Assembly: GCA_038501195.1 (NCBI GenBank)
Contig: JBBPUQ010000004.1
Location: forward strand, 1,922,001-1,986,000
Direction: 5' to 3'
Source: Nemania diffusa
Taxonomy: Eukaryota; Ascomycota; Sordariomycetes; Xylariales; Xylariaceae
DNA: 64,000 nucleotides
Shown here piece after piece: positions 1 through 58,769 of the stretch; the first letter of the stretch is position 1; every line of letters starts with the position of its first letter. The translations under genes and the position numbers were made by a program. Under the pieces are notes generated by a model. That model made no database searches. It was not told the DNA's origin and saw nothing but the letters and a program-made list of their open reading frames with translations.

Positions 1-1150
1 TTATAATACTTCTCCAGAGTATAGAACACGATAGCTTTGTTTTTATATTGTTCGTCTCGGCAAACAAGTCGGGCTTTTGGGAGAGCCTCATGAAGCGCAA
101 GTTCAAGCGTCTCCACGGTCGTTCTGTTCCATGCCACTTTCATAGTCCTAGTACCCCGGTTCCACACTTGATGCGGCGCAAGAGGAGGCACTAATATGAA
201 GTCGCCAACCTTCTGTTCGACGATATAGACGGGAAAGTTGGCCTTTTTCCAAGCATTGATTTGGGCGAAATGTTTTTCAATCTCGATGTCGTGACCAAGC
301 ATCGAGAGGAAATATTCACGCACGACTTCTCGGTCCTTCGTCTCTGTCATAAACCAGATAGAGCTTCCTGGCTTTTCCCCATTCTCGTCCCCCGATGCAT
401 CAACCATTATGTTCTGACCTAAGCTTGCGCACATCTCCCGATGGGCTGGCGTGTATGTTCCTTCATGGCCAACATAACACATGAGGTTTTGCGCTCGCAT
501 GTCTGGGTCAAGGCAACTCATTAGGTCGCCTGCAATTGCGGATGTCTTCTCGGGCGCACCGAAGATGTCGTCACCGCGAGACCCCTGACTCGGATTCTCG
601 CCGACGTTTTCATTCATGTAGAAAACATTAGGCGGTATGATCTTCTTGAGGTGGTTTAACCACTCGTCTGGGCAATCGATATCTTTGAGGTACAGGCGCT
701 GCCGACGTTCGTCGCGGAAGTTTGTAGGAGTCCACTGATTTGTAAGCTGCCTCATCGATCGGAGGTAGTGGCCAGCAGTCATAGGGATATCCGCCTGCGC
801 GGTAATGTCGCGAACATTCTCCTCTATCTACGAGGTCAGTAGTTGCCAGTCACGTCGACGGGTAAAGGCGTTAACCCACGTTTCTTGTCACATGTTTTCT
901 CTAGCCAAGTGGCGCTGAAAAGGTCCCTAGGCAGGACCCTATCCCATCCCTCAATGACCAACGGCCGACCACCTTCTATCACGTGAAGTTGAACGAGTTT
1001 CTCGAATCCGGCCTGGCCGAGTCGTCGGATCTGGGCGATAGAGATACGCGTTACCCAGTCGAAGTTGGGAGTTTGATCGACGAGGCCATGGAGATCGAGA
1101 TCCGGTGGTATTGGATCGAACTTTGCTTGTGGATGTAGCGCGCTCGGCAT
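1..1150 (-). CDS. JmjC-domain protein, 3' part cut off by the window edge
   Basis: Exons 880-1150 and <1-823, read leftwards; intron 824-879 has donor GTGGGT, branch-like CTACTGAC and acceptor ATAG, and restores the frame. About 364 residues are visible and the C-terminus lies outside. The JmjC fold is seen in G-T-Y-T-P-A-H-R-E (H218, E220 as Fe(II) ligands) and in the distal V-P-P-L-A-P-H-Q-V-W-N (H308), giving the HxE...H triad of 2-oxoglutarate dioxygenases. Family members demethylate histone lysines or hydroxylate proteins. I see no PHD, Tudor or JmjN domain in the visible part, so the substrate is open. An in-frame TTG upstream of the ATG at 1150 extends the frame, but the ATG is the sensible start. 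It is divergent from the COQ2 gene. Confidence 0.8.
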
Positions 1151-1942
1151 TTTGACTTGGATGGGCCTAACTGAAGGCAATCAGGTCGGCGCAACAACGC
1201 TTTCTGCGAAACGTGAGGAACGAGTTGTTATGTATGTGAGACCAAGTCACGATAACCTCGAGCGCGTCAAAGCGACGATGAATCGAGCGATCGCATTAGA
1301 TGAAGTGACGAGTTCCAAACCTCGGGGGTACAGAGTAAGAACTTTGTGTTTATTCGAGACTGGATGTGATGAAATTTGGGGGTTGGCGGTTCTGTACAGG
1401 TAAATAGGTACCTATCGCAAGCTTTCGGAAACTGCTTCGCGACAGCAGGCGGGACTTGAAGCTAACTGACGGTAAATTTAGTGGGGCATAATCCACTCTC
1501 TTCCAATCGATAATCGGCTTTAACAATTCACTTAGGTACCTAGGTACTTACCCTTGCACGGTACGTACCGACTGTAGTCTAATACGGTATCTTAGGAAAG
1601 CTTATACAGGACAAAACTCAGGCCATTTTCGACGAATGATATATACAATATTTCCCCTTCTCCTCTTTCTAGAAGGCATCGGGAGTTGCGGCCGATAGAT
1701 GTTAGAGTTGAGGCGTCGATATTTTCTTTTTGACCGTACCTAAAATCCCAAAAGTGAGGTAAGACCGTGTCCCATCATGCCAAAATACTCGTGGGAGGAG
1801 TGAAAAGTATAACCAAGAGAGTCATATTACTGAGGCTTGATACCAACTCTTGTAACATTTCACGGCATTGATATCTCATATTATCCGTTTGTAAGCATGA
1901 TTCGTTAACATCTAATGCAGATATAAAATCATTGGGGAAACA
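1151..1942. other. divergent intergenic region between the JmjC gene and COQ2
   Basis: About 0.8 kb serving as promoter region for both neighbours. The only long frame (1152-1403, plus) has no recognisable content. One copy of the palindrome TACCTAGGTA lies at 1537-1546. No RNA gene or repeat was recognised. Confidence 0.6.
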
Positions 1943-3163
1943 ATGTATTCCACGAGCATTTGTGCCAGGATAAGTCCGCTTTGCCGAAATGTATTTATAT
2001 CTAAAGCGTCACCTCTGAGTCGGCATATATCTGCAATACCCAGGCTGAGATATCCCTCAGTACGGGAGACAACCGTGGGCCTTATAAAACCAACACAATT
2101 AATAGCACTGACATCTCAACGCCTGGCTCATACTCTTGAATCACCCTCCTCGCCAGCAATAGCAGAACTACAGCCCTATTTACCACCAGCAACTGGGCTC
2201 CTCTCTCGCCTCCCTTCGTCGTGGGTCCCGTATGCGGAGCTTATGCGCATTGACAAGCCGGCAGGGACGATATATCTCTTCTTTCCATGTCTCTTTTCCA
2301 CGCTCCTCGCGGCGCCCCTTGCGACCCCGATGTCATCCCCTCTCTCCGTCATCGGGACCGCCGCACTTTTTTTCTCAGGTGCGCTCATCATGCGCGGCGC
2401 CGGCTGCAGCATCAACGACCTCTGGGACCGCAATCTCGACCCGCAGGTGACTCGGACGCGTCTACGGCCCATTGCCCGTGGTGCCCTGACACCATTCCAG
2501 GCTTTCACGTGGACGGGCGTTCAGCTACTAGCAGGCTTAGGGGTATTGCTACAGTTCCCTCCCGTATGTTTATACTATGGGATCCCAAGCCTTCTATTCG
2601 TAGCGACATATCCGCTTGCCAAGCGCGTCACCTACTATCCGCAGTTCGTGCTTGGTCTGACCTTCTCCTGGGGCGCTATGATGGGATTTCCCGCCCTTGG
2701 CGTGGACTTGCTCGCCGCAGATACTGGCGCTATAAGGGCCGCCGCTGCCTTGTTATACGCGAGTAACGTCGCCTGGACAGTGTTGTATGATATGATCTAC
2801 GCGCACATGGACATCCGGGACGATGCCAAGGCTGGCATAAAAAGCATTGCTCTGAAGCATGACACCGAGACGAAGAAGGTTCTTACCGGCTTGGCAGTCG
2901 TTCAAATAGGGCTGCTTGCCGGCGCTGGAATTGCGACAGGCGCTGGCCCGGCGTTCTTTATTGGAAGCTGCGGAGGAGCAGCCTTGACGCTCGGCTATAT
3001 GATTAAGAAAGTCAACTTGAAGAGTGTTAAGGACTGCTGGTGGTGGTTCGTCAATGGCTGTTGGATTACCGGTGGTGTTATTAGTTTTGGCCTTGGGGCT
3101 GATTACTTGATCCAGTACCTTGCGGAAGACAACAAACCAAGTGCTGAGGAGGTAGACGTATAG
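1943..3163 (+). CDS. COQ2: 4-hydroxybenzoate polyprenyltransferase, mitochondrial (COQ2)
   Basis: Intronless, 406 residues, UbiA superfamily. It attaches the polyprenyl tail to 4-hydroxybenzoate in ubiquinone synthesis at the inner mitochondrial membrane. Both Mg-diphosphate binding sites are intact: N-D-L-W-D-R-N-L-D (N158-D166, followed by RTRxRPIARG) and Y-D-M-I-Y-A-H-M-D-I-R-D-D (Y282-D294). Several hydrophobic segments run from about 105 to 395. The N-terminal 60 residues are rich in Arg and Ser and poor in acidic residues, as expected for a mitochondrial presequence. The sequence R-I-D-K-P-A-G-T before the first helix is typical of COQ2 and argues against a meroterpenoid-cluster UbiA, as does the absence of PKS or oxidase genes nearby. 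It converges on RPS23. Confidence 0.93.
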   Translation: MYSTSICARISPLCRNVFISKASPLSRHISAIPRLRYPSVRETTVGLIKPTQLIALTSQRLAHTLESPSSPAIAELQPYLPPATGLLSRLPSSWVPYAELMRIDKPAGTIYLFFPCLFSTLLAAPLATPMSSPLSVIGTAALFFSGALIMRGAGCSINDLWDRNLDPQVTRTRLRPIARGALTPFQAFTWTGVQLLAGLGVLLQFPPVCLYYGIPSLLFVATYPLAKRVTYYPQFVLGLTFSWGAMMGFPALGVDLLAADTGAIRAAAALLYASNVAWTVLYDMIYAHMDIRDDAKAGIKSIALKHDTETKKVLTGLAVVQIGLLAGAGIATGAGPAFFIGSCGGAALTLGYMIKKVNLKSVKDCWWWFVNGCWITGGVISFGLGADYLIQYLAEDNKPSAEEVDV

Positions 3164-3879
3164 ACCTGCAAAAAGAGGCTGGAAAGGCCTATAGATGTGT
3201 AACAAGATGGTTTAGGAATAGTGGCGGCATCAATGGATAAAGGCGACCCCGGGATTTGTACATTTATGTATCCTATATGTAGCATACTAAATAAATTTGT
3301 AAAATTTTGAACTCAAAATCTTCGACTATACACTCAGACCTAGTTGAGAATAGGTCAGGAATGACCTAATTATAATCGTACTGGGCATGGTATTATGCCT
3401 GCTGGTAGGCATTCGTGGGTGGAGAAATGAAGAATATTTATATTCACAATGCATTGTCAATGATAGTGGTAGGCATTACGTCGTAGGCGTGATCTCAATG
3501 GATGCACAATTTGAGTCTATACACCCAATTCGATAATCGTATCTCTACCCTTCCTGTACTAATCGAGATATAATGATTTATGGGAAGCAGCGCAGACAAT
3601 TTACGGCTCGACCTAGGATATCTTCAAAGATGCGAATTTTGCAGCACATGCACTTTAAGGAAAGGAAAGGATTGATGTAGTGTAGTGGATGATACTGAGA
3701 TCTCTATTTTGGATCCGATCAACCTAGGAAGATTGTGTGTATGAAGGCCCGAACCTACGATGCTAGTAGAAAATCAAGCAAGCCGTGTTGACTCCGCATT
3801 CCCAATGGTGAACCTTTAATTCGTCACACAAATTTTCGTCCTCGTCTCTCATGACTCCCCGGCCCGGCGGCGATTCCAT
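3164..3879. other. convergent 3' intergenic region, COQ2 / RPS23
   Basis: About 0.7 kb between two 3' ends. It is AT-rich, with an AATAAA-like stretch at about 3290 (actaaataaattt) that could be the COQ2 polyadenylation signal. No open frame or RNA gene was recognised. Confidence 0.5.
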
Positions 3880-4452
3880 TTATGATCTGGGCTTCTCCTT
3901 CTTCTCCTTCCATAGAGCTAGTAGACCGACACCCGACACCTTGACGACCTTGAAACGGACACCGGGAATATCACCCTTGGCCTTGCCCTTGCGACCGAAA
4001 CCGGCGATCAGGACCTCGTCGTTCTCGTCGACGAAGTTCAAGCAACCGTCATTGGGGACTATGGTGAACCATCTATTAGCTTCATCGATACTATACGATA
4101 TGCAGTTTCCTCCCTTCCCAAAATCGGAATACACCTCTGTCTCTGCTGCTCTACCGATAATGATTGACCACTTAGGAAATTAGGGTTTCGTACCGAAAGC
4201 AGTAACTTTCTTGCCGTTCTTGATGAGCTGGACACGGACACACTTTCGAATGGCCGAGTTGGGCTGTTTGGCTTCGACACCGACCTTCTCGAGGACGATG
4301 CCCTTGGCGTGGGATGAACCACCGAAGGGTGAGGACTTGAAGGCGGTACCGAGAGCACGCTTCTTGTATCCCAGATCGGCCCAGCGCTGATCCTTGCGGT
4401 GGGTGCGGAGCTTTCTGGCCGCGTTGAGACCACGAGGCTTGCCTTTACCCAT
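3880..4452 (-). CDS. RPS23: 40S ribosomal protein S23 (uS12)
   Basis: Exons 4194-4452 and 3880-4058; intron 4059-4193 (135 bp, donor GTACGA, acceptor ATAG). The product has 145 residues, the exact eukaryotic uS12 length. It begins MGKGKPRGL, contains [15 protein letters not shown] and ends in KPRS. The intron sits inside the codon for V of the decoding-centre loop V-P-N-D-G-C-L-N-F. uS12 lies at the A site of the small subunit and controls decoding accuracy. The upstream sequence suggests a 5' UTR intron (separate entry). Confidence 0.97.
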
Positions 4453-4458
4453 GATTGC

Positions 4459-4634
4459 TAGGAAGAGACAATGTTAGCGGGTGGATTCGGTGGTGGTGAT
4501 GCGCGTGCGAGTGCGGATGTTGGGTGGTTCGATGGACAATCGGCCGATAGAGAGCGCAAAAAGATCGAGAAATCGAGGGACTGCGGGATTGCGGGCGATG
4601 GTGATATTTCTTGGATAGTTGGAGAGAGACCTAC
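4459..4634 (-). other. putative 5' UTR intron of RPS23
   Basis: On the minus strand a strong donor (GTAGGT, at about 4633) and a pyrimidine-rich acceptor (CTTCCTAG, ending 8 bases before the ATG) could bracket an intron in the leader. Leader introns are common in fungal ribosomal protein genes. This is inferred from motifs only. Confidence 0.4.
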
Positions 4635-5035
4635 CGATTTATTGGTGATATCGCCGGAAAATGGGTTTGTTGTAGAGACTTGGTTGGAGGTTAGATGGCT
4701 AGCTGGGCGTGGATGGTAAGTTCTCTCGGTTAATTTTTGCACAGAGGGGCGCAGGAGGTAGAAAATTGAAGGGTTTGCCCTAGTGCAAAAGGCTGAGTGG
4801 GCTGGCTTTTGTGGCTAAGTAGATAATCACTCTTATCTATGGTGTGGCGTTTTCAATTTACCCTGTACAGAGTACAGTGGGGCTATTCAGTACATGAAAG
4901 ATACCTAGGTACATAAGTCCGGTATGCAGAAGTGCATGTATGCATAATTTATTCTTATTACGTAGTGCAGCTCTCCTCAACCAACTGCCTACAAAGCTGG
5001 CGAGCATCGCCATTATTACTACGCAAGATGTAGCC

Positions 5036-5935
5036 ATGTCTCAAAACACATTAAAACCGAGCAATTCAAATGCTCGCGACCCTCCCCCAAGTCTCTTCCT
5101 CCACCCGTCACCAAGCGCCTCACATGTCTCTCTCCCGGGAGTCGTTCCAGGTGCCGGGGCGCCATCATCCGCCTTGAAGTTGAGCTCGCAACCATCCAGC
5201 GGAACGCCCACTCAGCAGTCCCAAGCGCCACCGCCGCTTTCTCGCACGGGCTCCCTCCTCAATTCTCTCAACCGACCGATTCCGCGTCTGCAAACTGGAG
5301 ACTCGACTCGAACCGCCGATAGAACCGACGCGTTGTGGGCCGAGATGCAGGCGACGCTGGAAGACGCCGAATTGTCCGCCAACGGTGGCACACACGTATT
5401 TGGTCCTGATCATGATCGCAAGCTTGCGGAACTACGGGTCGCTCAGATTGCATTGGCGCAAGCCTGGGGTCGAAGTGAGGCCGACGACGCTGCTAGTGGA
5501 TCAGTTGCCTCTGAGACGGAGGTGCGAAATTTGAAAGGCGCCCTTGGTGAGGTAGGAGGTATGGCCGCTGCTGTAGCAGCTGGTGCTGCTCATAGTGCCA
5601 TTATTTCATCGGGACCTGCTAAGGGGCCCGCTGACGGTACAGATGCGGGCAAAAGCACCGTAGGGACGGGGAGCGCCCAACCCACCACCAGTGGCCTCGA
5701 CGGTGAAAAGCTCGGCGAGAAACTCGGTGCCAAGCTGGAAGAGGAAACAGAGCGGGATATTCTCCTTGCTAGGAATAGGAGAGAGGCGAATGATCGGTAC
5801 TTCAGCAAAGTAGACCAAGGCGTGAAAGATGTTGTCGCCAAACTCGAAGACGTTGCTATCGCCATGAGAGCTGTCGAGCAAGAGACAAGGAGTGTTTGGG
5901 GTGAAGAAGGAGCTTCAGAAAGCGCTGATGCTTGA
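5036..5935 (+). CDS. conserved fungal hypothetical protein with a C-terminal helical segment
   Basis: A 299-residue frame starting at the ATG at 5036 (context GCCATGTC). The frame can be extended to an ATG at 4940, but the extra 32 residues look like 5' UTR. Residues 1-110 are Pro/Ser-rich and look disordered. A helical stretch around D-R-T-D-A-L-W-A-E-M-Q-A-T-L-E-D-A-E follows, then an Ala/Gly-rich linker. The C-terminal 70 residues are charged and helical (E-R-D-I-L-L-A-R-N-R-R-E-A-N-D-R-Y-F, then V-A-K-L-E-D-V-A-I-A-M-R-A-V-E-Q-E) and look like a small coiled-coil module such as those in multisubunit complexes. I do not recognise the family. Its place beside RPS23 and COQ2 fits a conserved single-copy gene. 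Confidence 0.65.
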   Translation: MSQNTLKPSNSNARDPPPSLFLHPSPSASHVSLPGVVPGAGAPSSALKLSSQPSSGTPTQQSQAPPPLSRTGSLLNSLNRPIPRLQTGDSTRTADRTDALWAEMQATLEDAELSANGGTHVFGPDHDRKLAELRVAQIALAQAWGRSEADDAASGSVASETEVRNLKGALGEVGGMAAAVAAGAAHSAIISSGPAKGPADGTDAGKSTVGTGSAQPTTSGLDGEKLGEKLGAKLEEETERDILLARNRREANDRYFSKVDQGVKDVVAKLEDVAIAMRAVEQETRSVWGEEGASESADA

Positions 5936-38296: not shown

Positions 38297-41154
38297 TTAC
38301 AATACCATAGTCCACTGCACAGCTTTACGTCTCATCATCGCCAGCAAGCCGAGCGGTAGATACTTCTCGTCGACAAGCCTAAAGCCGCCCCAGCCCTCTT
38401 TGAGTTCGTCTTGGTACAATTGCAGCACCCATTTGATCTGGAGCACTTTTGGATCATCCACATTCTTGAAGCCAGCACGAGACAGCGCCTTTGTTACAAA
38501 CCGATCTAGATCTGCACCCTTCTGAGTAGGCACCTCTAGAAGTTTACTGTAGGCCACCTCGAGAAGAGGGCTTGTGGATTCGCGATAGCGCGTGTACTCC
38601 TCGAAGGTCCACAGATCATCGCCGGCACCCGGAGTCAGCGCCTTGTCCAGGACTATCCGTGCAAATTCGGACCAGAAGCTGTCGACATAGACCGTACGGA
38701 GGTGGTGAAGGCGCTCTTCTGCGGTGCTGAGCTTCACAATTTTCTTATGAGCTTTGTCGAACTCTGCCTTTTCGTCGGCCACTACAACGAGAGGGTCAGC
38801 CAGTGCTAATATCATCTTTGATGCAGCTAGTGGGTAACTCATGGGATATAGGACCACAGCAGGGGAGACTTACGGTATTTACGCATGATGTCATCAGGCG
38901 ACGACTGCCTCTTTTTATCGAGGAATTTATTCCGGAAAGCCAGATATGGAATGAATGGATTCTTAACGCCCAAGCCACCCATTTTCTCGGGCAGGAAGAT
39001 GAAGGCGTCCGGGAGGTCTGAAACTCCAAACCGTTCCTTGATCTTAGATTTAAGGTAGTCAACAACATTGCCTTCGATGGCGGATTGGTTCTCCTCGTCC
39101 TGGGCAGATCCCGAATTTTGTTTGAAAAGAACGCCCTGGATTCGCTGGTATGTCTGTAGCACACTGTCTACATGCTTCAGACCAAAACAGTATGCAGGCT
39201 CTCCAAGAGTGTGGCTGAAGAATCGGCCGATGCAACTATTCCACGTCTTGACCCAGTCGAGAATATTGTTGCAGGCTGCAAGCTGCTTCTGCAACTGAAC
39301 TACATGCTCGTCGATTTGACCTTGATCTAGAACCCACTCTCCGCTGTCCTCGTCTAGAAGAAGGTGACCGATCCGGACTAAACCTTCAGGGAGTGTGGCC
39401 TCGATTTCAGCATCCCGACTCTTCTCCGGGTTGGTCAGATAAACTGAACCAGTTTTGCTCTTATTGAACTGGACACCCATAATATCTGCGAACTTTTCCA
39501 TCTCTTTCCATGCCCGAGCGCAGCGTGAAGGCTCTCCACACAAGAATAGATCGTCATGAAGGCGGTAGAGCAGCATCCCTGTTGTTTTATTGACAGCAAG
39601 GTCCATGATAAACAGAATCATCTCCCCAATAAGTTTCTCCGGTGCGTGAGCCATTGGTACGCCCCGCTGCCGAATTCTTGGCTCGCCTGTTGACGATGTC
39701 GCTGGTGTCCAGGTCATGTTGAGGGGTGCCTGCAGGACCTTTCGATAGAAAGACACCATTTTCTCAGAATATCCCAGAAAGCGCATGACTGTGAATATAG
39801 TTGAGTGCGGGAGCCCAGTAGCGTACCATTGCAGGTCTGACTGAACAACCGCTGTCTCACCGTGTAGTGTACGATTCACTATGGCCTCGGCAGCTAAAGT
39901 CCGGAGGAGCCCTTGTTTAACGTTGGCGTTTTCATTTACTTTTTCATTTATCTTCTTCCCTCTTTCGTCCTCATCTGCGTCGTCCTCTTGGACAGCGCCG
40001 TCGTTGACATATGCTCGATTCTTGCCGATTGTTGTAACAGAAGCCGGGAGCTGTGACAAGAAGAAGGAACTTCGAAATAAGCTTGAGCGAGTGTTGTTCA
40101 CCGACTCAGTACCCAATCTCGTCCCACTGAAGTATTCATATCTCACACGATCGATGCTCGGTATACCTTTGCCTGCCGTCCAATCCCAACCCCCATCACG
40201 ATCATCCAAGAAATTGGTTAGGGCCTTCTTTAGTTCGACACAGTTCTTAATGCCGACGTAGTGGATGAAGATGGCTTGTAATACATCTTCATCCATCCAG
40301 ATTCGATATTTTCCATTCAATTGTTGCCGTGGCAGAACTGGTATGCCCTGCTCACCAGCTTCCCAAGACCAATTATCAAAGTCGGCAATCCGCAGATTTA
40401 GAACATCAGCAATTTCATCGAGAACCACTGGGCTTTCGAGGAATTCTCGTAGGATATCCTGCTTCTCGTCGCTGAGGAGATCCTCAGCAAGTAGTCCATT
40501 CACACACCAACGCAGGGTATCCCTGTCAAACGGTTCGTCTGAATCCAGTTCATGGGTTTCAATGTAAGATCTAAGACTCTCTAGCGCTTTTGCGGATTCG
40601 TCACTATCGAAGAGACCCTTTAAGTACTCTTCGATTCTAGCCTCATCCGTCTCGAGCGGCGTGAAAACAACTTTTTCGAACTTGTCGCAGAGCTCCTGGA
40701 GATGTTTTTCGTGGCGGTTGACATCGCTCGACTCGTCGGCAGAGTCAGGCGCTTCGCTCATTGGCGTTGACGAGTTCATCCATTCGGTCACAAGACGAGA
40801 CCATAAATAGCCTATGCTGAGTTTCCGACTCTGCACTTCTAGTTTTGAGCGGAGCAGTTCCTCGTATGACTGAAGCATCTTAAACGGAACAGAGGGGTCA
40901 TAGCTAGATTGCTGAAGCCATAGATCAATGTTCGAAATTCGGGAATCCTTGACTAGGTCTGCCTCGCAGAGATTCTTCACGCCGCGAAGAAGCTGGGTGA
41001 TCCGCTCATGGATATTGTTTGGGTGCTCTGCAGCCGCAGATAGCACCTCGTTTTTCCGAGACTCATATCTGCCTCGTTGCTTCTCAATCTCGCGAATCTT
41101 CGTCAGCGAGATCGACTGCATAGTCTGAGAGAGGGCCGACGATGATTGCGCCAT
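38297..41154 (-). CDS. rvt: rvt: domesticated single-copy reverse transcriptase-like protein
   Basis: Exons 38874-41154 and 38297-38781; donor GTAAGT, CTGAC branch region and acceptor TTGTAG; 921 residues counted from the ATG at 41154 (context ACAATGGC). An in-frame ATG at 41178 adds 8 residues. The N-terminal third is helical with no known enzyme motif. The RT core contains R-Q-R-G-V-P-M-A-H-A-P (about 495-505), the catalytic box L-Y-R-L-H-D-D-L-F-L-C-G (D534, D535) and then F-N-K-S-K-T-G-S-V. The L-H-D-D box, the position of the intron-poor gene among housekeeping genes, and the lack of endonuclease, RNase H, gag or repeats fit the fungal rvt family rather than a retrotransposon. Known members polymerise nucleotides in vitro and respond to starvation or translation stress; the role is unknown. 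Confidence 0.88.
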
Positions 41155-42430
41155 TGTTGCCGCGTGAGGAGATATCATATACAAAGAGGATGTTAGGAGG
41201 CGATACTAGGTAAAGTGTGATCGTGTATCTCTCTAGTAAACAAAACAAGCTTTCGGCTCTCATATATACGCAGATAGTATGTCTACCCCTTGCTTGTCGC
41301 TTCGTTGCCTGTCGCTCAGCTGAACGCCATTACCAGGGTTGGATGGTCCGCAGTTCACACTAGTAGGTAGCCACCTACACTACGCAGTAAACATCTCGAT
41401 CTCTACCAACCATCTCTCCAGGGACGAAAATGGTGAATGTTTCCTCTCTTGACATTTATTGAGAGAGTTAGGAGACTATGCAATTTTTCATGTGATTGGT
41501 GGAGCTAACCAATTATAGTCTCAGCACAATCGTTTAACGCGCAAGACTTATAACTACGTACATATCGTGTATACTTGGTAAGCTATCTGGTAGGCATGTC
41601 ATTCGAGTCTTTACGCATAGAAGCCCGGGGCGACGCTGCTTATTAGGCAGCATAGCCAGAGCAAAATCTATACAGATTTATCAAGTGCATATCTACCTCC
41701 CACCTAGAATTAGCTGACGCACACAGCTCGTAGGCAACTTTCCCCCGATACGACTATCACCCGCAGCAGCTGAAACTACCAACCCTGTCACTGGTCAAGT
41801 TCCTGTGATTGATAACAAAAGGACTCCTATTACGCTACCTATAAGCAGCGAGGTATTGGCCCGTGCGATGCCCTATGGCGGTGTGGAGCCCAAGTTTCCC
41901 GGGGTCCTGTGTCGTGAACAGCCCAGGAATTGAAGACTATCTTACGATCGTACTTCGTAGTTATTCTATCTACTACAACGCTTACTTCAAGAGCCGGATA
42001 CTTCTCGTAAACTTCGATCACACCCTCGAGACTTAAGCGAAGTACTATTTATAAAATCATTGAAACTAGGCAATAGTCAGTTTTCAGCTTAGCTCCAAGA
42101 TCTAATAGCGTGTCTATGCCATGTATGGTCCAACAAGGATCGGTAGTGCTAAAAGTGATCAACCATGTTGTATTGCGTCGCGATCTCTTCTACCTTAATT
42201 ATGATACAGGTTTATTAATGCGTTGAAATGAAGATTTTTCATTATATAGTACTAGTGTAGTCCCAGCAAATTCATTGATTCTTTTTAAAACGCGATAATT
42301 ATCTTCACAAACCTGATCTTGCGAAGGTAGCGAGGTGAGGTGAGGCTATCCCCGCATTGTGACTAGAAAGCCTAAAGCCGCTATAAGATATAGTGTCAAA
42401 TAGTCCTGCTAGCCATTAGTTACTTAGTAA
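41155..42430. other. intergenic, rvt promoter side to tRNA-Gly
   Basis: About 1.3 kb, no gene supported; only one short minus-strand frame at 41839-42021. Confidence 0.5.
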
Positions 42431-42743: not shown

Positions 42744-45018
42744 CTAGATCAATGTGACTATTTGGGGAGCATCACTGGGGCCAAAGGCTTCATTCAGTAT
42801 TGGCGTTTCCAACCGGTCTAAGAAAAGGGTTGCGATACCTATTCTCTTCCAAGCGTGAGGGTCTTGGACCTGGTCGTAAGTTTGCGCCCGCAAAATGAGG
42901 CCAGTAGCCCGCGCATCGCTATTAACGTGCAGATATAAAAACATCCCTGGCACGGTCGGAAATACATCAAGATCCATAGAATCTTCAATATCTAGTCTTC
43001 CGAAAGCGAATGTTTTCCTACTGTCGCTAGCTCCATGTCCATTCCGAGTAGCTTCGAGGATCAAGTCATAGGAGAAGAAGTCCCTACCCCTTCCCGAACC
43101 ACCATGCTTCTGGATTCTGTCAAATCGCTTCACTAGGCTTTTGACTTTGAGAAAACCGGGGTCGATTGAGCGCGGATTGGGGCGCTCTTGATCTATGTCA
43201 AGCACTTCAAAAGGTTGCTTGGCAAGATAGCTTAGCAGAGTATCCGGGCGGGACTGCTGCGAGTTCCTAAAATCTCTCTGCCAGAGATATATCTGTCCCT
43301 CAACTGCAGCCCAGGACCAACTAGGGGCACGCCACACGTCGAGACGCTCGGCTTTACCGAACGACACACACCAGAGCAATTCGTCCCGAAGATTCGATTT
43401 CCACATGCCAGCAAACCGGATGTATTCATAGCCTGTCACTGCGGCCATCTCCTCCGCTACACTCTGAATAGCTGGGAGCTTGTCCGTGCCAATCGTCAGG
43501 TTGCGTGAGCTATACTCGCAGACGAAAAGCTGCCAGTGCTGATGGAGTTCTTCGAAGGAAACTGATTCACCGCGCGGCCACAAGGTACTATTAATCATGT
43601 CGGATTCTTGCGTGGGCTCGTTTTCTTCGGATCGCAAACAGCCCCGACATTCAAAGAATATCTTGTTCCGGCAGAAGTGCACCATTCTCGTCGACAAGCT
43701 ACGCTCCTGCATTGTCCACGCCCTTGTGTTCCACTTAGATCCATTCACGGCGAACATGCGGTAGCTATCCTGCGAGTTATCATAGTCATAGACAATCATA
43801 TAGTCGTCGCCAGAAGCGGACCGTTCCCCTGTAACTGGAAGAGAATAAGCAACTTTTACTGCTGGGATGGAATCGATATTTCTTTCCAGGAACCCATTAT
43901 GGCAGGATATAGCTGAGGTGGCGACGATAGTAACGAGGGCATAGCGGTAAACGAGATGCATGAGGATAGCTTCTTCTCTCCAGTCACCCAACGAGTCCTG
44001 TATTATACACAGCGAGTCGATCCATAAGTACCTCAGCCCGAGGCGCACACATACGTGCGCTGCGTCGACGAAGTTCTTCGGGAGCTCGGCCTCCTTAATG
44101 CCATCCTTGAATCGGTAGAGGTTCGATAACAAGAGGCAAAGAGGAGGCGATGGAGTCTGATTGCCCCAAACGTGGCTCAAAGCAGCGAATTTAGCTCCGG
44201 CTGGAATATCACGATCTAGGGATTCAACGAGACGTATCTCGAGGCCGTGGTCTCTATAGTCGATCTCTAGAAGCCGGCTAGGGATCCAATTTGAAGCTGT
44301 CTCAGCGTTGAAACACTGAGGGTGGGTATTCAAGCAATTGTCAATCCAATACTTGATCTTCATGACATTTTCGTCTGAGAGTGTCGTTGGGCTGGGCAGC
44401 TGCCGCCTCCATTCTAGTCGAGGGGAATTTAGATCTTGTGTTGTGTAAGCACGAGTACTAGGGCTCATCGATCCAATCCACCAGCATACCTATGGAATCG
44501 AAGACAGGAAACTCGAACTCTTCTGTACCCCAGGGGCTACCGTCTACGAAACGCAACGTTCCGGTAACCGGCCGACAGGTCACCCACAGAGATGTGACTG
44601 CACCACCACGTTGATGTCCATCCTGAGGAGGGAAAGTCTCTTCGTCCTGGACGGAACCACTAGGCGAATACGGGAAGAAATTAAAGAAGGCTTGTAACTT
44701 TACTTTTTGGTCCCATGGTTCGCTAAGTTGCTTCTTTTGTCGTTCCGACGATACCCATACGAGTCTACCATTGCTTTGCTCAATAGATGAAATGTCTTCC
44801 CGGGGGATTGAAGTAAGCCTTCGCCATATTAGAGAGCACAATTTACAGCCGGCTTGGGCAGACGATGCAAGGCTTGGGTATGTGGGATACAAGTCTTCCC
44901 TGTTGAAAGGTGTCCCGAGAGTTGAGGTTTGAATTTCTGTAAGTTGACCCCGATCAGGTACGATCGCCGCGCAGGTAGCGCAAGGTAGATGCGCTGGCCC
45001 ATCTGCTATAGATGTCAT
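42744..45018 (-). CDS. HET-domain protein (heterokaryon incompatibility type)
   Basis: Exons 44490-45018 and 42744-44413 give 732 residues. Two overlapping frames are joined by a 76-bp intron (donor GTATGC, acceptor ACTAG) that restores phase. Residues 1-175 are the usual cysteine-containing front part (C-A-T-C, then A-G-C-K-L-C-S-L-I-W). The HET domain runs from about 253 to 410: F-A-A-L-S-H-V-W-G, then L-G-L-R-Y-L-W-I-D-S-L-C-I-I-Q-D, then A-L-V-T-I-V-A-T-S-A. The C-terminal half includes W-N-T-R-A-W-T-M-Q-E-R and A-P-S-W-S-W-A, also typical. HET domains trigger cell death in non-self recognition; HET has a TIR-like fold. The 76-bp intron lacks a canonical branch site, so a frameshift is a less likely alternative. 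Confidence 0.88.
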
Positions 45019-52027: not shown

Positions 52028-53092
52028 CTACTTAGTAATCCTGAAATCTCTACCAACGCTGATACTTCCCGTGTTTAGCATACCCTGACCAGCAAAAACA
52101 TTACTCGCTGATGCCTTAGGTTCTGATGCTGAAGCTGGCTCAAGTGCTGCGACCTCGGGGTCGATATAGGACAACAGCTCCTTCGCACAGGCTGCAGCTG
52201 TAGCGGCCGCATAATGCTGCCAAGTGCTGTTCTTGTGCGAGTCCGCATAGTCGGAAATGCCGCGGATCACGATGGATGGGTACTCAGTCAGCAACCCGGC
52301 TGCCTCCATCTCGAAGCAGAGAACATCGCCTGCGAACCTACGGGCAAGCTCATCCCTTGTTGTTGCGTTCTTAATCACGCTATCGCCCGAGGCGATCAGC
52401 CCGTAGTGAATCACAGGTCCTTTGAATTGACGCGCAGGTCGTGCGACGGCACGAGACGGATCGCAGTTGCTCGTACAGACTCGTGTGTCGGGAGGATGAG
52501 GGAAGTCTGCTTCGAAGAGGACGTCAGGTTCTACCGGTTCCTTGTATGAAATCATGCGTGGCCATTTCTTGAACATGGCTTCCATGTACTCTTCGATCTT
52601 GCTGTCTCGACCTAGGTGGTCAGATCGCATGTCCTGAGAAGCATTCCTGAGAAGAGTAGGCAGTGGCCACAAAAACCCCTTCAATTCAATCCCCGAAGTT
52701 GTCTCCCTCCTCAAATCATACTGGACAACACCTGGGTGCTCGCCTTCAGGCATGCTAATGACTACATCGCCTAGGCGAATATCGTGCTTTTCACTGGGGA
52801 CCCCGCCGCCAATTCCTACGAATAATCGCCACTTGATCGAAGGGAATGAGCGCGACATGTTCGTGGCAACAGTCGCGGCAGCACCCTTCCCCTGCTGACT
52901 TGGTAGACACGCCAGGACCACATCGTGGCCATTGAGCTTACCAAGTATGTAACTGTTCGAGTCGCCGGGTTGACTTGGCAGGCGGTGGTGCTCCTCGTCG
53001 AGCACGTAGCGGACTGCGTTCCTTTCTAGGTCCATAGCGCAGAGTATAGCGACAGTATAAGCGTCTCGAGTCTTCTGGGTTTGGGATGCCAT
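52028..53092 (-). CDS. PNP_UDP-domain (nucleosidase) effector with C-terminal amyloid-type motif
   Basis: Single exon, 354 residues. Residues 12-310 form a phosphorylase/nucleosidase domain of the PNP_UDP_1 (MTA/SAH nucleosidase-like) type: V-G-I-G-G-G-V-P (92-99), I-R-L-G-D-V-V-I-S, H-Y-G-L-I-A-S-G-D-S-V-I, F-E-M-E-A-A-G with E263, and I-S-D-Y-A-D with D281, matching the nucleoside-binding Glu and catalytic Asp of the family. A flexible Ala/Ser/Pro/Glu linker (311-330) leads to the tail F333-I352, FAGQGMLNTGSISVGRDFRI. The neighbouring NLR starts with the same motif. PNP_UDP is a common effector domain in fungal NLR systems, and a related bacterial PNP effector (Detocs) destroys ATP. I infer an NLR-controlled nucleosidase; substrate untested. 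Confidence 0.85.
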   Translation of the reverse strand: MASQTQKTRDAYTVAILCAMDLERNAVRYVLDEEHHRLPSQPGDSNSYILGKLNGHDVVLACLPSQQGKGAAATVATNMSRSFPSIKWRLFVGIGGGVPSEKHDIRLGDVVISMPEGEHPGVVQYDLRRETTSGIELKGFLWPLPTLLRNASQDMRSDHLGRDSKIEEYMEAMFKKWPRMISYKEPVEPDVLFEADFPHPPDTRVCTSNCDPSRAVARPARQFKGPVIHYGLIASGDSVIKNATTRDELARRFAGDVLCFEMEAAGLLTEYPSIVIRGISDYADSHKNSTWQHYAAATAAACAKELLSYIDPEVAALEPASASEPKASASNVFAGQGMLNTGSISVGRDFRITK

Positions 53093-54808
53093 AGCTGCTT
53101 ATCGTGTAGTGCTTCTCACAGTATACAAAAGTCAAATCCGATTATTTTCAACGAAGTTGCTCGGCTATATAGGCAAAGTGAGCTCCTTCATGTGGGAGAT
53201 AGAATTGCACTTATATGCTGAACATAGTTGCCGCTGTGCTCTACGTTGATGAGTTTCCTGTATAGCCGACGAGAGTAGAGGTTGGTGAAAACGCCTTATT
53301 TTCAGGTTCCCTATGTTTAGAATCAAATTGTAATCTGGCTAAGGCAACCGGCCTGGAGTCGGGTGTGATGGGGCCGAGCCTCATTGCAGAGTATCGAATC
53401 GCATGCATATTCTCCAATGAATGCCTTTGATCCATGCAATGCTAGGTGCCAATTTCACATATTATATGCGTGTCAGCAACTGGGCGCGGCCATTTCGCAA
53501 TGGCGAAAGATAAGGCTAGTATTGAAATAGGCCGTGTGCCTACTCTTAGACGCCTGACCACTGCCATCTTAGTCTAGGGTAGAGAGGCGGAACCTCGCTT
53601 GAAAAGAGCGAATAAAAAAAGAGCAATTCGTACTAAGGATTGTAGGTGAAAGCTATGGAACAGGAAGTAGGAGAAGCTCTAGCTACGTAATTTATAGGCT
53701 GGCACAAGCCACAGTGCGTGTGGCTTGGGTGGTTACGGTGGCCCTCAGCTGTTACTAGGCCATAACCATGTAGGTATGCACTTAACACCTTAAACCTATC
53801 TCGCCCCACTATATTGACCTAATCTAGCTTAGACTAACGTGACTTAGCCACACGGGGCTTAGTGCTTAGCCTATAGCTTAGATTATATAGAAGAGCTATG
53901 CTTTTATAGATACATTATTGCGTTTAAGTACATATATTATATATAGCTTATAGTATGCTTATATGAAAGCAGAATCTAATTCTTAATCGATTAATATAAA
54001 ACTAAGTTTGTTATATGCGCAATTAAAAGAGCTTTTTTATTCTATTTTATTTAAATTTTTCAGCCTCAGGGTTGCTGAATAACTTGCGTTCAAAGCTTAA
54101 AAGTTGATCAGATCAAAGGATATAGAGTTAAGTGTATAGGTTTTGACCCAGTAAGGCTGTGGGCCACCGTAGGTGGTGGCCTAACCATTACAATATAATA
54201 GGTGACAGCCGTGATAAGTACCTAGGTAGGCGGTAAGTAATGGATGCCTACGGTGGGGATTTTAATGTCACCTTCAGAAATAAATTTGAGGTAGGGTTTC
54301 ACGCAAAATCCAGCGAATTTTCACCGGCCAATGAATGCTCTCGGATGCGATGCGAGTTGGGCCGTCACGTTGCGTGTCTGATGGCGTTCATTGAAGATCC
54401 CCCCTCCAGGGCTGGGAGAAGAGCAATTCGTTTCTACCGCCAAATACCTTGCCTTTGAACGGATAACACCTCTATAATAACGGAGCCATCAATGTTGATA
54501 CCCGGCGAAATCTAATCTTGCGCCTTTGCGCGTTTTAAATTATGTTTAGCGTTGTTCTTCGTCGTGTCTTCGTAACAAGTAGACGACGGGGTGATTTAGA
54601 TTCAGGCGAATAAAGCATTTAGTCTGGCATTCCGGCTCAAACACTACGCAGCGTCTCCGGCGGTTAGACTAATAACTTCAGGAGAGATACATGCAAGTCA
54701 CTTTACGCGATTACAAACTTCCCTGCGATTCGAGCCTGTTGCATCGATCCTCTGCCCCCTTTACATCCAAGCACAACACGCACGCTTGTGTCTGTCGGGT
54801 ACTGGAAG
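53093..54808. other. divergent region between the PNP effector and the NLR
   Basis: About 1.7 kb between the two start codons, containing a MITE-like inverted repeat (separate entry), a very AT-rich core (about 53880-54060) and one TACCTAGGTA palindrome (54219-54228). It must hold the promoters of both partners. Confidence 0.5.
53705..54171. repeat. MITE-like inverted-repeat relic
   Basis: TACGGTGGCCC (53734-53744) and GGGCCACCGTA (54161-54171) are exact reverse complements. The match continues with gaps (53734-53755 against 54151-54171). Just outside the left arm is a 9-bp perfect hairpin, CAAGCCACA-GTGCG-TGTGGCTTG (53705-53727). The AT-rich interior has no coding capacity. This fits a small non-autonomous DNA element. 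Confidence 0.45.
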
Positions 54809-57800
54809 ATGGCCGAGTTCCATGGTCAAGGTGTTTTGAACAGGGGTCAATTAACTGCCGGCCGTGACCTGAACATTGGTTTGTCGTCATCGAGTTTTCC
54901 CTCATTCGAGTGCTAAAATCTCCGAAGGTGTAGCATCTCGAAATAGCGACCCTCTCCTAAAGGTTCGATCAACCGATCCTCGTGATGATAAGGCGCGCAT
55001 TGAGCAACAGAAAGGCGGGCTGCTCCGAGACTCGTATAAATGGATTCTCAGTCACGAGGAGTTCTTGAAATGGCGCGACAGCGAGGGCTACCAACTTCTC
55101 TGGGTCAGAGGTGACCCTGGAAAAGGAAAGACAATGTTACTTTGCGGCATCATCGACGAGCTCAACAGAAGGCGCAAGCACAACTGGAATATTGCCTACT
55201 TTTTCTGTCAAGGAACCAATTACAAACTCCGGAAAGCATCTTTCGTTTTACAAGGTCTCATATTTTCATTGTTATCTCAACAAGATGAGCTGCTAGATTG
55301 CGTTCGAGAGGACATTGAACAAGCAAGCGGGGAGATGTTCCGAGACTTAAATGGGTGGATTGCACTCTGCAGAATATTTGGCCGCCTGGTCGAGGAAATG
55401 GAAAGGCGCCAGCAAATTACTTACCTTATTGTGGATGGACTAGACGAATGCTCGGAAGACCGACGGCATCTTCTAAAATGGATCGCGGCTCTGTCGGCAC
55501 CAAGCATCAAATTGCTTATCTCAAGTCGCAATTGGCCACTCATTGAGGATGGACTTAGCGGTGCCACACAGAAACTACTGTTACCCCTAGAGTTGAACGA
55601 CCAATCAATCTCGGCCGCCGTGGATCACTACATTGACCATAAAGTTATAGAGCTGGAAATATCGAAAGGCTTAAGATCAGAACCTCGCGAGGCGATCAGA
55701 CGACACCTCAAGTCCTTCTCCAATAACACGTTCTTATGGGTTGCTTTAGTGTGCGAGGAACTCGGCCGTGAAGATACGTATCCATGGGAAGTTCTTGACA
55801 TGGTCCATGAATTCCCGCCCGGGCTTGATGAGCTTTACGAACGAATGGCTGCTCATTTTCTTGCCTCGAAAGACGCAAAGATCTGCTGCCAAGTTCTTTT
55901 CGTTCAAACACTTGCTTACCGGCCGCTCACATTGGCCGAGCTCTTGTCTATTGCCAAGTTACCAAAGAAGTTCGTTGAAAGCTGGCTACAGAAAATCGTC
56001 GAACTGTGCGGTTCATTCTTGACAGTCAAGAATAACACCGTCTATTTTGTTCATCAGTCAGCGAAAGACTACTTGATTAAGAGCATGCCGACCTCTCTCT
56101 TTCCATTAGGCCGTCTCGCTGCTGGGCATCACGCCATGGCTATACAAGCGATACAAGCCTTGGCGGAGACGCTGCGAGAAAACATGTACGAGCTCCCGTC
56201 GCTAGGATCTCGCGTTGATGACTTCAACGCTCCTGATCCCGATCCGTTGGGCGGAATACGCTATGCTTGCATGTACTGGGTCGATCATATGATTGATGCT
56301 GGGTTATTAGAAAAGGAAAACGTTGAAGATGGCGATCTGGTGTACCGCTTTCTTGAAAAGCACCTATTACACTGGTTCGAAGCTCTCAGCCTCTTGAAAA
56401 GCTTAGGAGTAGGCATCAAGGCCTTGACGAGGACATTATTCCAATTACAAACAGGCACTAGAGCACCCGGCTCCGAGGAACATAGCCGGGCTCCAGGGGC
56501 CCATTCCAAGCGCCGCGAAGTGAGACCGTCTATGGGTAGAAGCCTCGGCAGTGGCAGCATGCAAGCTTTACAGGACTTAATATACGATGCATGGAGGGTT
56601 TTACGACTCCACAAGGTCGGGATTGAAACTGCACCGCTCCAGGTGTACACCTCGGCACTGATCTTCAGCCCTACACAAAGCCTTGTTCGACAAATATTCT
56701 TGAAGAAGCCAGAATGGCTGTTGATGACTCCTACGGCGGAGAGTTATTGGGACAGCACATGGCTCCAAACCCTAGAAGGCCATGGGGAAATTAAGTGTGT
56801 GTCATTTGCGCCTGATGCAAGGCATGCTGCGTCTGGCTCCAATGACGGCGTGGCTCGAATATGGGATGTAACGACGGGCGAATGCTTGAACATCCTCAAA
56901 GGTCATAAAGGCGAAATTGATTCAATTGCATTCTCAATCGATGGCTTGCGCTTGGCTTCAAGCTCGGCAGATTGCACAACTCGAATTTGGGACACTCAAT
57001 CGGGCGCGTGTCTGCAGACGCTCAAATATGGCACCAGTGACCCGGACGAGTCTCGCAGCAAGTTGGTTGCCTTTTTCGACGCCAGCAACATCATATCAGC
57101 TGATGTTTATGCGACGATCTGTAGATGGAATTTCACGACGGGAGAGTGTCGCACTACCTGGCAAAGGGATGCGGAAGTTAGAGCGCTCGACTTGTCACAC
57201 AGTGGCACACGTGCGGCGTGGGCGGTAGATAACATAAGGTATACGGGAAGGATAGTGGCAGTAGATACTGTGGCTGGCCAGTACCATAAAACGCCATGGT
57301 ATCAGGAGGTATATATGAACCCAAAACGCGCAGTATCGATAGCCATGTCGCCCGATGGAGAATATGTAGCTATGACCCAAGATCGGCTAGCTCGTGTTTG
57401 GAGACTGGCTACGAATGAGTACAAATACCTACACATCCCGTTGCTATACCCTTGCCTAAACAGTTTGGCGACCGCGATGTCGCCTGACAACAGGTACCTT
57501 GCAGTAGCCATTCATTACCACCTATGGGAGTGTAATATTGCCACCGGTCAGTTTGTCGAATTGGCAGGGGGTAGGTACCATAGACACTCGTCCATTCTGG
57601 CTTTAGCGTACTCACCTGACAGCAGCCTGTTGCTCGTTGGTGAGAAGGATGGCGCTGTGCAAATCTTGGAAACGACAGCAGTCCGGCTGCAACAGGAAAT
57701 GCCAAAATTGCGAAACGGCGATACTCCGTTCGAGTTGACACTGTCTCCCGACGGCGCCTTCCTTGCAATGGGCCATGTTCAGTTCCAGGTATGGGATTTG

Positions 57801-58769
57801 GTGAAAAAGCGAATGAACAAGATTATACTGCCTACCAATGGTGTTTCGGCGACATTCTCACCTGGAAACAAATATTTGGCTTGCACCGGGATTGAATGGC
57901 GAGATTCAGTTTTCGAGAGAGTCTCAGAGCTGATTGAATGGCGAGATTCAGCTTTCGAGAGAGTCTCAGAGCTGTTTGATACGGCTACTGGCCGCTGCCT
58001 GTGGAAGACGACCAAAAGGAATGAGCCTAAAAACCACACCTCTATTGCACGATGGTCGTTTTTGGCCGACGGGATCCGCGTCGCACTACTATCTCCACTC
58101 CTAGAATCCAGCCTTAAAATACAGATATTGGACGCAGCTACAGGTAACACCCTCAGCACCCACACTCTCTCAATTGGCGGGTATCGAAGTGTCACCGCGA
58201 TCTCACATGACGGGAAACATCTAGCACAAGGTTTGCGAGATAGCACTGACCATATATATATCTGGGATGTAGCAGCAGGGACTCGTATATGCTCGGTAAA
58301 CCTGCCTACTTACTACGTTGCGCATGACGCCCATCTCAAGTTCTCACTGGACGACAGATATGTAATACTTTATGCACGCAACACTGATCTTACCTGCCTC
58401 GCGGATGTCGCTAAAGGAACCCTGCTAAAAACCGTGAAGGGGCTTCACCCTTTCAAGCCGGGGTTTGCTGACCTCCAAACGCAGCGTGGCAATTTAGACA
58501 TAAACCAAGTCTTGCTACACGACTATGAGGATCCAATATCATATGGAGACGACAGCGCATATCTCAAGAAACCTTTACCTGGAATAGGTATCACCCCAGC
58601 GAGAGACTGGATTCTGAAAAACGGCGAGCCCTACCTTTGGCTACCCCCGCAGCATCGAGTATCGTCATTAGGTCAAATCCAAATAGCTGGAAACACGATT
58701 GTGCTGTTTAATGGTCCGGACGAGGTGTATTGTTTTCGGTTTGATTCTCCTTCTAGAGCACAATGTTAG
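54809..58769 (+). CDS. NACHT-WD40 NLR with N-terminal amyloid-type motif
   Basis: Exons 54809-54878 and 54934-58769; intron 54879-54933 has donor GTTTGT, branch TGCTAAAA and acceptor GTGTAG, and phases agree; 1301 residues. Exon 1 encodes MAEFHGQGVLNRGQLTAGRD and then L-N-I; F4-I23 matches the tail of the PNP effector. The lead-in S-T-D-P-R-D-D-K-A-R-I-E-Q-Q-K-G-G-L-L is typical of fungal NLRs. NACHT: Walker A G-D-P-G-K-G-K-T (83-90), Walker B Y-L-I-V-D-G-L-D-E-C (187-196). A helical region follows to about 630, then a degenerate WD40 array (first blades G-H-G-E-I...I-W-D, G-H-K-G-E-I...I-W-D). The WD40 half should sense ligand and NACHT oligomerise. A 42-bp tandem duplication sits at 57891-57974. 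Known fungal relatives are HET-E, HET-D and NWD2. Confidence 0.9.
57891..57974 (+). repeat. 42-bp tandem duplication inside the NLR coding region
   Basis: Two adjacent 42-base copies (57891-57932 and 57933-57974) differ at one base. Each encodes I-E-W-R-D-S-[V/A]-F-E-R-V-S-E-L, keeping the frame. Near-identity shows that it is recent. Confidence 0.95.

What the first reader, a model, noticed from the sequence alone, without database searches (positions are those of the whole stretch)
52028..58769. Linked PNP nucleosidase effector and NACHT-WD40 NLR share a 20-residue prion-like signalling motif
Seen: effector residues 333-352 (FAGQGMLNTGSISVGRDFRI) and NLR residues 4-23 (FHGQGVLNRGQLTAGRDLNI) align without gaps. 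11 of 20 residues are identical (F, G, Q, G, L, N, G, G, R, D, I) and five more are conservative. The motif is at the extreme C-terminus of the effector, after a flexible linker, and at the extreme N-terminus of the NLR. The genes are divergent neighbours. Of the 11 shared residues, 7 use different codons, so this is not a recent copy but similarity kept at protein level. Known: in HET-S/NWD2-type systems, NLR oligomerisation makes an N-terminal motif adopt an amyloid fold that templates the same motif in the effector. Inferred: the nucleosidase is activated this way and kills or arrests the cell by destroying a nucleotide.
Basis: partly seen in the sequence, partly recalled or inferred. Interest (0 to 1): 0.97.

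Follow-up and report, generated by a model that had tools for sequence, protein, structure and literature searches.

The report
Fungal amyloid-switched nucleosidase pair
Two neighbouring genes of a fungus, an immune-type receptor and a predicted nucleotide-cleaving enzyme, carry the same 20-residue motif of a published prion-like family, through which the receptor likely switches on the enzyme to kill or arrest the cell; it is a new member of a known kind of system, with an unusual change that both partners share.

Summary
A PNP_UDP protein (residues 333-352, C-terminal) and a divergently transcribed NACHT-WD40 receptor (residues 4-23) share an ungapped 20-residue motif: 11 identities, 7 of them with different codons, 0 of 5000 shuffles as good. 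[quoted passage not shown] Profiles of PUASM-type motifs, also without the closest Xylariales orthologues, recognise both copies. The HET-S/NWD2 analogy is right as mechanism, but the pair is not a HET-s member. New here: (1) over 20 pairs, partners' motifs match each other on average better than non-partners' (0 of 50000 permutations), residue 8 being equal in 19 of 20, which independent evolution on the gene trees never gave; (2) the signature glutamine is leucine in both window partners, by different codons; (3) the same genome holds a second, diverged PUASM-like pair whose receptor ends in ankyrin repeats. Catalytic acids are kept; substrate (ATP by analogy), seeding and cell death are untested.

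The parts
52028..53092 (-). effector gene, PNP_UDP_1 nucleosidase-fold protein, 354 aa plus stop, no intron
   Evidence: Pfam PF01048 E 1.1e-14, residues 13-296
52205..53056 (-). PNP_UDP_1 domain (residues 13-296); acids E23, E263, D281
   Evidence: E23 and D281 in 67 of 67, E263 in 66 of 67 aligned sequences; aligned with the same residues of MTA/SAH nucleosidase 3eei (the stretch with E23 scores only 3.8 bits)
52037..52096 (-). effector-side motif, residues 333-352, FAGQGMLNTGSISVGRDFRI
54809..54878 (+). receptor exon 1, almost entirely the motif
   Evidence: splice inferred from reading frame and a homologue's annotated protein
54818..54877 (+). receptor-side motif, residues 4-23, FHGQGVLNRGQLTAGRDLNI
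54879..54927 (+). inferred 49-nt intron directly after the motif
   Evidence: no RNA evidence
54928..58769 (+). receptor exon 2: NACHT (NPHP3_N) and WD40 repeats
   Evidence: NPHP3_N E 5.6e-33, NACHT E 1.3e-14, WD40 E 6.9e-30
53093..54808 (.). 1.7-kb interval between the two divergent genes, presumably holding both promoters
   Evidence: coordinates; function inferred

Best explanation
This is a PUASM receptor-effector pair, in which the NACHT-WD40 receptor is predicted to assemble on sensing non-self and its N-terminal motif would then fold as an amyloid that templates the same motif at the effector's C-terminus and so likely activates a predicted purine-nucleosidase enzyme. Shown by sequence: both genes, the shared motif at opposite protein ends, the linked divergent arrangement, recognition by PUASM-type profiles, retained catalytic acids, and partner-matched evolution. 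Shown elsewhere, for a Colletotrichum PUASM pair: both peptides form fibrils, and the effector-side motif behaves as a prion in Podospora. Inferred: that this leucine variant does the same, that receptor seeds effector, that clustering turns the enzyme on, that it cleaves ATP or another adenine nucleotide as bacterial PNP immune effectors do, and that the cell dies or stops growing.
For: Motif identity beyond chance. Profiles built from homologues' motifs, without the window's, hit both window copies (effector, receptor): all 125 sequences E 1.2e-8, 1e-7; the 90 left after taking out the closest orthologues 5.3e-6, 6.1e-7; the effector-only profile finds the receptor copy (3.6e-7), the receptor-only profile the effector copy (1.9e-5); among 6558 ORFs of the window and 39 loci of its genome the only other place at E 1 or less (0.17 with the 125) belongs to the second PUASM-like pair. 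Published PUASM: effector C-terminus, NACHT or NACHT-WD40 N-terminus, neighbouring genes, fibrils, prion. Partner matching: 20 pairs, mean alignment score 63.4 for partners and 51.1 for non-partners, 0 of 50000 permutations; Xylariales only 18 of 50000; 7 other pairs 1415 of 50000. Position 8 equal in 19 of 20 pairs, non-partners 44%; 0 of 7615 (PNP tree) and 0 of 7904 (NACHT tree) simulations of independent change gave 19 or more. Enzyme: MTA/SAH and futalosine nucleosidases are the best fold matches in the PDB (E about 1e-12, TM-score to target about 0.7-0.8) and the best sequence matches; PADLOC's PN-superfamily effector model matches residues 231-304 (E 4.9e-12); E23 and D281 invariant, E263 in 66 of 67. 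Reviews say PNP_UDP modules act on ATP in immune cell death (PMC12881547, passage; PMC10197012, passage; Detocs PNP in PMC11249213, passage).
Against: The literal published pattern is not met: Q is L in both partners and the core is two residues shorter than the long form (but only 37 of 99 motif-bearing effector homologues match it literally). 21 of 120 effector homologues lack the core in their last 45 residues, some close ones (P0018, P0021) with a decayed version. One same-contig pair (Nemania FL0031) shows the motif in neither predicted protein. Partner matching holds on average, not one to one: in the first, 15-pair run the own receptor scored best for 2 of 15 effectors and the own effector for 3 of 15 receptors. 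In Fusarium falciforme position 8 differs between partners (H/N). In Xylaria arbuscula the effector (one assembly) has L but the receptor (another) Q, so L/L is not obligatory. Receptor-to-effector seeding was not shown even for the published pair (co-aggregation left for a separate study). The substrate is not identified: NCBIfam matches to MTA/SAH nucleosidase stay far under cut-off (82 versus 169 bits), and no ATP-nucleosidase structure is named among the 50 best fold matches. Nothing was expressed or measured here.
Confidence: 0.75

Rival explanations
1. The motif is a homotypic assembly tag that only co-localises receptor and enzyme (a scaffold), without amyloid templating; the enzyme is switched on by proximity or direct contact.
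For: Partner matching would follow from any homotypic contact; amyloid was shown for a related Colletotrichum motif that has the Q lost here, and seeding between the two sides was not reported.
Against: Both PUASM peptides formed fibrils and a GFP fusion was infectious as a prion.
Confidence: 0.15
2. The shared motif is a recent copy (gene conversion or terminal duplication) between neighbours and says nothing about function.
For: Partners are on average more alike than non-partners in 20 pairs, which conversion would also give.
Against: 7 of 11 shared residues, among them L at position 7 (CTA and TTG), use different codons; the motif is kept on both sides in pairs from Xylaria, Nemania, Trichoderma, Ilyonectria, Fusarium and Colletotrichum. 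Codons of the other pairs could not be read.
Confidence: 0.05
3. The enzyme acts on methylthioadenosine, S-adenosylhomocysteine or another nucleoside and does not destroy ATP; the output is a metabolic signal, not cell death.
For: Best sequence and fold matches are MTA/SAH and futalosine nucleosidases.
Against: Fold cannot tell substrate; reviews report ATP as the target of PNP immune effectors; matches stay below the MTA/SAH family cut-off.
Confidence: 0.3

Closest known systems
PUASM pair of Colletotrichum gloeosporioides Cg-14 (EQB50682.1 / EQB50683.1), Wojciechowski et al. 2022, PMC9815663 (passages; sections 24, 33, 39, 45)
   Same: PNP_UDP effector with C-terminal motif, NLR with N-terminal motif, neighbouring proteins, FxGxG core and a xxD-type end
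   Different: window motif has L for the signature Q in both partners and is two residues shorter; no experiment on it
HET-S / NWD2 of Podospora anserina and other HRAM pairs (PMC4518210, abstract and passages)
   Same: same logic: NLR motif, effector C-terminal motif, neighbouring genes, concerted evolution of partner motifs
   Different: HRAM effectors there carry HeLo or HeLo-like domains and two repeats of a 21-residue motif; here an enzyme with one motif of another family
Detocs and other bacterial PNP immune effectors (PMC11249213, passage; primary paper not read)
   Same: PNP-fold effector in an immune architecture
   Different: bacterial two-component system; ATP cleavage untested here
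PNP and NACHT stretches lying close together on the same strand in this genome (e.g. C6:608383-609285 and C6:609474-610550)
   Same: same enzyme family next to an NLR core
   Different: possibly one fused protein, so that no signalling motif would be needed; gene structure not checked

Membership tests
PUASM amyloid signalling pair | motif recognised by a profile of PUASM sequences | tested here: met
   E 5.3e-6 and 6.1e-7 with 90 homologues' motifs, closest orthologues left out. The profile is mine; the authors' own was not available
PUASM amyloid signalling pair | printed consensus FxGxGxQxxGxGxF | tested here: inconclusive
   FxGxG and the next G present; Q is L in both and the GxF part is shorter, so the string itself is not matched. 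It reads as a consensus rather than a criterion: 37 of 99 motif-bearing effector homologues match it literally
PUASM amyloid signalling pair | C-terminal on a PNP_UDP protein | tested here: met
PUASM amyloid signalling pair | N-terminal on a NACHT or NACHT-WD40 NLR | tested here: met
PUASM amyloid signalling pair | partners encoded by neighbouring genes | tested here: met
   divergent, 1.7 kb apart
PUASM amyloid signalling pair | amyloid fibrils and prion propagation | not testable with these tools
   published for one Colletotrichum pair
HET-S/NWD2 (HRAM) | HeLo or HeLo-like effector domain | tested here: not met
   only PF01048 listed for the effector at E 5 or less
HET-S/NWD2 (HRAM) | two 21-residue HET-s-type repeats in the effector | tested here: not met
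   one 20-residue motif at the C-terminus; no HET-s Pfam model listed for effector or receptor residues 1-123
sigma or PP motif | match to the NACHT_sigma or PP Pfam models | tested here: not met
   neither listed at E 5 or less for receptor residues 1-123 or the effector; HMMER filters drop many weak matches
ATP nucleosidase immune effector | cleaves ATP to adenine | not testable with these tools
   catalytic acids kept; substrate unknown

The most novel reading that the evidence does not exclude
PUASM motifs carry a residue-level address: position 8 (and here position 7) must be the same in receptor and effector for prion-like seeding, and the window pair is a re-addressed channel in which the signature glutamine became leucine in both partners by separate mutations, running beside a second, diverged PUASM-like channel in the same genome. 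That would make cross-talk between parallel amyloid immune signals predictable from one or two letters.
Probability: 0.3. Interest if true: 0.68.

Novelty: new member of a known kind. Interest (0 to 1): 0.42.

Why it matters
It shows that PUASM pairs recur across Xylariales and that receptor and effector motifs tend to change together, residue by residue, as reported for HET-s-type pairs. That gives a concrete, cheap test of what decides whether one amyloid signal seeds another, and adds a Q-less variant and a likely ankyrin-type receptor to a family described by a Q-containing pattern and by NACHT or NACHT-WD40 receptors.

Tried and rejected
New motif family: rejected, because profiles of homologues' PUASM-type motifs find both copies and the published example has the same layout. 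HET-s/HRAM, sigma and PP membership: no Pfam hit. Chance similarity: rejected. Recent duplication: unlikely from codons. Insulation between the two PUASM-like pairs of the genome is only weakly suggested: identities of effector 1 with receptors 1/2 are 11/10 and of effector 2 with receptors 1/2 are 9/10; BLOSUM62 sums 61/45 and 40/46. The bacterial promoter scan says nothing for a fungus. The PF01048 genome search missed the second effector, so its 9 matches are a lower bound; the search with the effector protein gave 16 matching pieces. Statements in my notebook entry 1 that are wrong: the effector has 354, not 353, residues, and not all listed pairs show the motif (Nemania FL0031 does not).

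Rows dropped. Profiles: 3 of 128 extracted motif stretches (P0091, P0098, P0190: misaligned, truncated, false match). Structure alignment A1: 67 sequences, the window's and 66 of the 120 effector homologues, picked by me mostly for an intact tail. Pair test: Nemania FL0031 (no motif in either prediction) and same-species hits on different contigs (X. arbuscula, T. virens Gv29-8, C. navitas, M. ibericus and others). Pairing rests on consecutive gene numbers for 7 pairs, on equal organism and contig length for 12 (distance unknown; Ilyonectria has several receptors on that contig and I took the one with the motif), and on the window itself. Split so, partners still match better: 8 pairs, 204 of 40320 permutations; 12 pairs, 0 of 50000. 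In the 8-pair subset position 8 is equal in 7 of 8 but hardly varies; the informative S/S and Q/Q cases are in the other subset. The T. virens effector motif is cut short in its prediction. Position 8 was singled out of ten positions after seeing the data. Permutations treat pairs as exchangeable; the tree simulations are the control for relatedness, run at six rates, with only 115 and 404 usable simulations at the lowest. A first run with 15 pairs gave 0 of 20000, and 0.00025 for the 13 Xylariales.
Full report
Where and what. The window is C4:1922001-1986000 of a 55.6-Mb, 16-contig fungal assembly. The effector's best hit is 98% identical, in a record labelled Hypoxylon argillaceum, followed by an unnamed ENA protein and several Xylaria species; the receptor's named best hits are Xylaria and Nemania. 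The species itself is not named to me.

Observation. The effector is 354 aa without an intron, with a PNP_UDP_1 domain over residues 13-296 (E 1.1e-14). The receptor is read as a 70-base first exon that is almost only the motif, a 49-base intron and a long second exon with NACHT and WD40 domains. Residues 333-352 of the effector and 4-23 of the receptor align without gap: 11 identities, 3 further positive BLOSUM62 pairs, 7 of 11 shared residues with different codons, and no shuffle as good. The splice is inferred: an annotated X. arbuscula relative starts with the motif and continues at the same junction (P0122); an ENA-sourced prediction (P0123) that seems to read through the intron position lacks the motif.

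Identity of the motif. Wojciechowski et al. 2022 (PMC9815663; passages, sections 24, 33, 39 and 45) describe PUASM: pattern FxGxGxQxxGxGxF, found uniquely with PNP_UDP effectors in both of their searches, at the N-terminus of NACHT or NACHT-WD40 NLRs encoded nearby, with fibrils from both peptides of one Colletotrichum pair and prion behaviour of the effector-side motif in Podospora. Homologues of both window genes show this layout. Of the 120 best effector homologues (of 7947 found), 99 have an FxGxG-type core in their last 45 residues, with Q at position 7 in 89, L in 4, others in 6; 37 match the printed pattern letter for letter. Of the 209 proteins in the two capped receptor lists, many of them other NLR types, 50 match a loose core pattern in their first 130 residues and 9 the printed pattern. 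Profiles built without the window's motifs find both copies, and each one-sided profile finds the copy on the other side. So this is a PUASM pair. It is not a HET-s, sigma or PP pair by Pfam.

What is unusual. Position 7, the Q of the published pattern, is L in both window partners (CTA and TTG codons). Among homologues L occurs in 4 of 99 effectors and in none of the receptor motifs counted (of 52 matches one, with V, is a false match in another protein type). A degenerate DNA pattern for FxGQGxLNxG matches the 55.6 Mb in just two places, the two window motifs; its reversed control matched nowhere. In X. arbuscula the effector has L while a receptor from another assembly has Q, so perhaps the effector changed first. 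The core is the two-residue-shorter form seen in most of the closest Xylariales effectors.

Do partners change together? I paired effectors and receptors from the same genome: 7 by consecutive gene numbers, 12 by equal organism and contig length, plus the window. Partners score 63.4 and non-partners 51.1; 0 of 50000 permutations; within Xylariales (13) 18 of 50000, without the window (12) 82 of 50000, the 7 others 1415 of 50000. Both kinds of pairing show it separately. It is an average effect: with 15 pairs the own receptor was the best match for 2 of 15 effectors and the own effector for 3 of 15 receptors. Single positions, ten tested: 8 is equal in 19 of 20 pairs against 44% for non-partners (N/N, H/H, S/S, Q/Q; the exception is Fusarium falciforme H/N); position 4 is 55% against 33%; position 7 is 95% against 85%; position 2 shows nothing. 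Shared ancestry alone should not make an effector resemble its own receptor more than a cousin's, and simulations of independent change along either gene tree, conditioned on at least the observed number of changes on both sides, gave 19 or more equal partners in 0 of 7615 and 0 of 7904 runs. Concerted evolution of this sort was reported in 2015 for HRAM pairs (PMC4518210, abstract and passages). In the main text of the 2022 paper a search for coevol, co-evol, concerted, covari, cross-seed and orthogonal found no such statement for PUASM, though its Fig. 5a (legend seen) shows paired alignments and its text notes a hydrophobic pattern conserved between pairs.

A second pair in the same genome. 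A DNA pattern for FxGxGxQ(N/H)xG matched twice in the 55.6 Mb; the reversed control pattern matched once. One match is the C-terminus of another PNP protein (L044; C4:3518706-3519773 aligns to the window effector at 52%); beside it, divergent, lies a NACHT receptor with ankyrin repeats (Ank_2 E 4.2e-17) that carries FSGDGIGNAGSIVAHRDIYI from residue 38 after the frame's first ATG, against FIGNGFQNAGNIQAGRDVVN in the effector. Profile scores are weak (E 0.00054 and 0.058); the claim rests on both ends of one divergent PNP-NACHT pair. The published PUASM receptors were annotated NACHT or NACHT-WD40, so an ankyrin receptor would extend the family. The other match (L040) lies in a frame that I did not identify. 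In several other places PNP and NACHT stretches lie close together on one strand (C3, C6 and C2), possibly fused genes; the one on C3 has a stop inside the PNP match. None was studied further.

The enzyme. The AlphaFold2 model (mean pLDDT 77, 67 sequences) matches MTA/SAH and futalosine nucleosidases best. E23 and D281 are invariant in the 67 aligned sequences and E263 in 66; they align with the same residues of 3eei, the E23 stretch only weakly, and I recall them as the catalytic acids of this enzyme family. The enzyme is therefore likely active. Reviews attribute ATP cleavage to PNP immune effectors (passages); the primary paper (Rousset et al. 2023) I saw only as a reference. No tool here can name the substrate.

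Verdict. Observation confirmed; interpretation right in kind and largely known. New member of a known kind, with a Q-less core in both partners and a partner-matching signal that deserves an experiment.

Noticed in passing
L044 (G000:C4:3514500-3522500), 1027-3576 minus and 4189-5295 plus: Second, diverged PUASM-like pair in the same genome: divergent NACHT-ankyrin receptor and PNP effector.
   Followed up: partly
window 42744-44489, minus: HET-domain (heterokaryon incompatibility) gene, PF06985 E 1.4e-26, about 7.5 kb from the effector gene: another cell-death type gene nearby.
   Followed up: partly
window 57891-57974: Two adjacent near-identical 42-base units inside the receptor's C-terminal part (IEWRDSVFERVSEL / IEWRDSAFERVSEL), a tandem duplication in the putative sensor region.
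   Followed up: no
window 53801-54200: AT-rich stretch (GC 0.32-0.35 against 0.47 for the window) between the divergent genes.
   Followed up: no
window 38839-41205, minus: 788-aa open frame without any Pfam match at E 0.001; part of it looked reverse-transcriptase-like to my eye, not tested.
   Followed up: no
P0018, P0021 (homologues): Close effector homologues with a decayed or truncated motif at the C-terminus: possible pseudogenes or gene-model errors.
   Followed up: no
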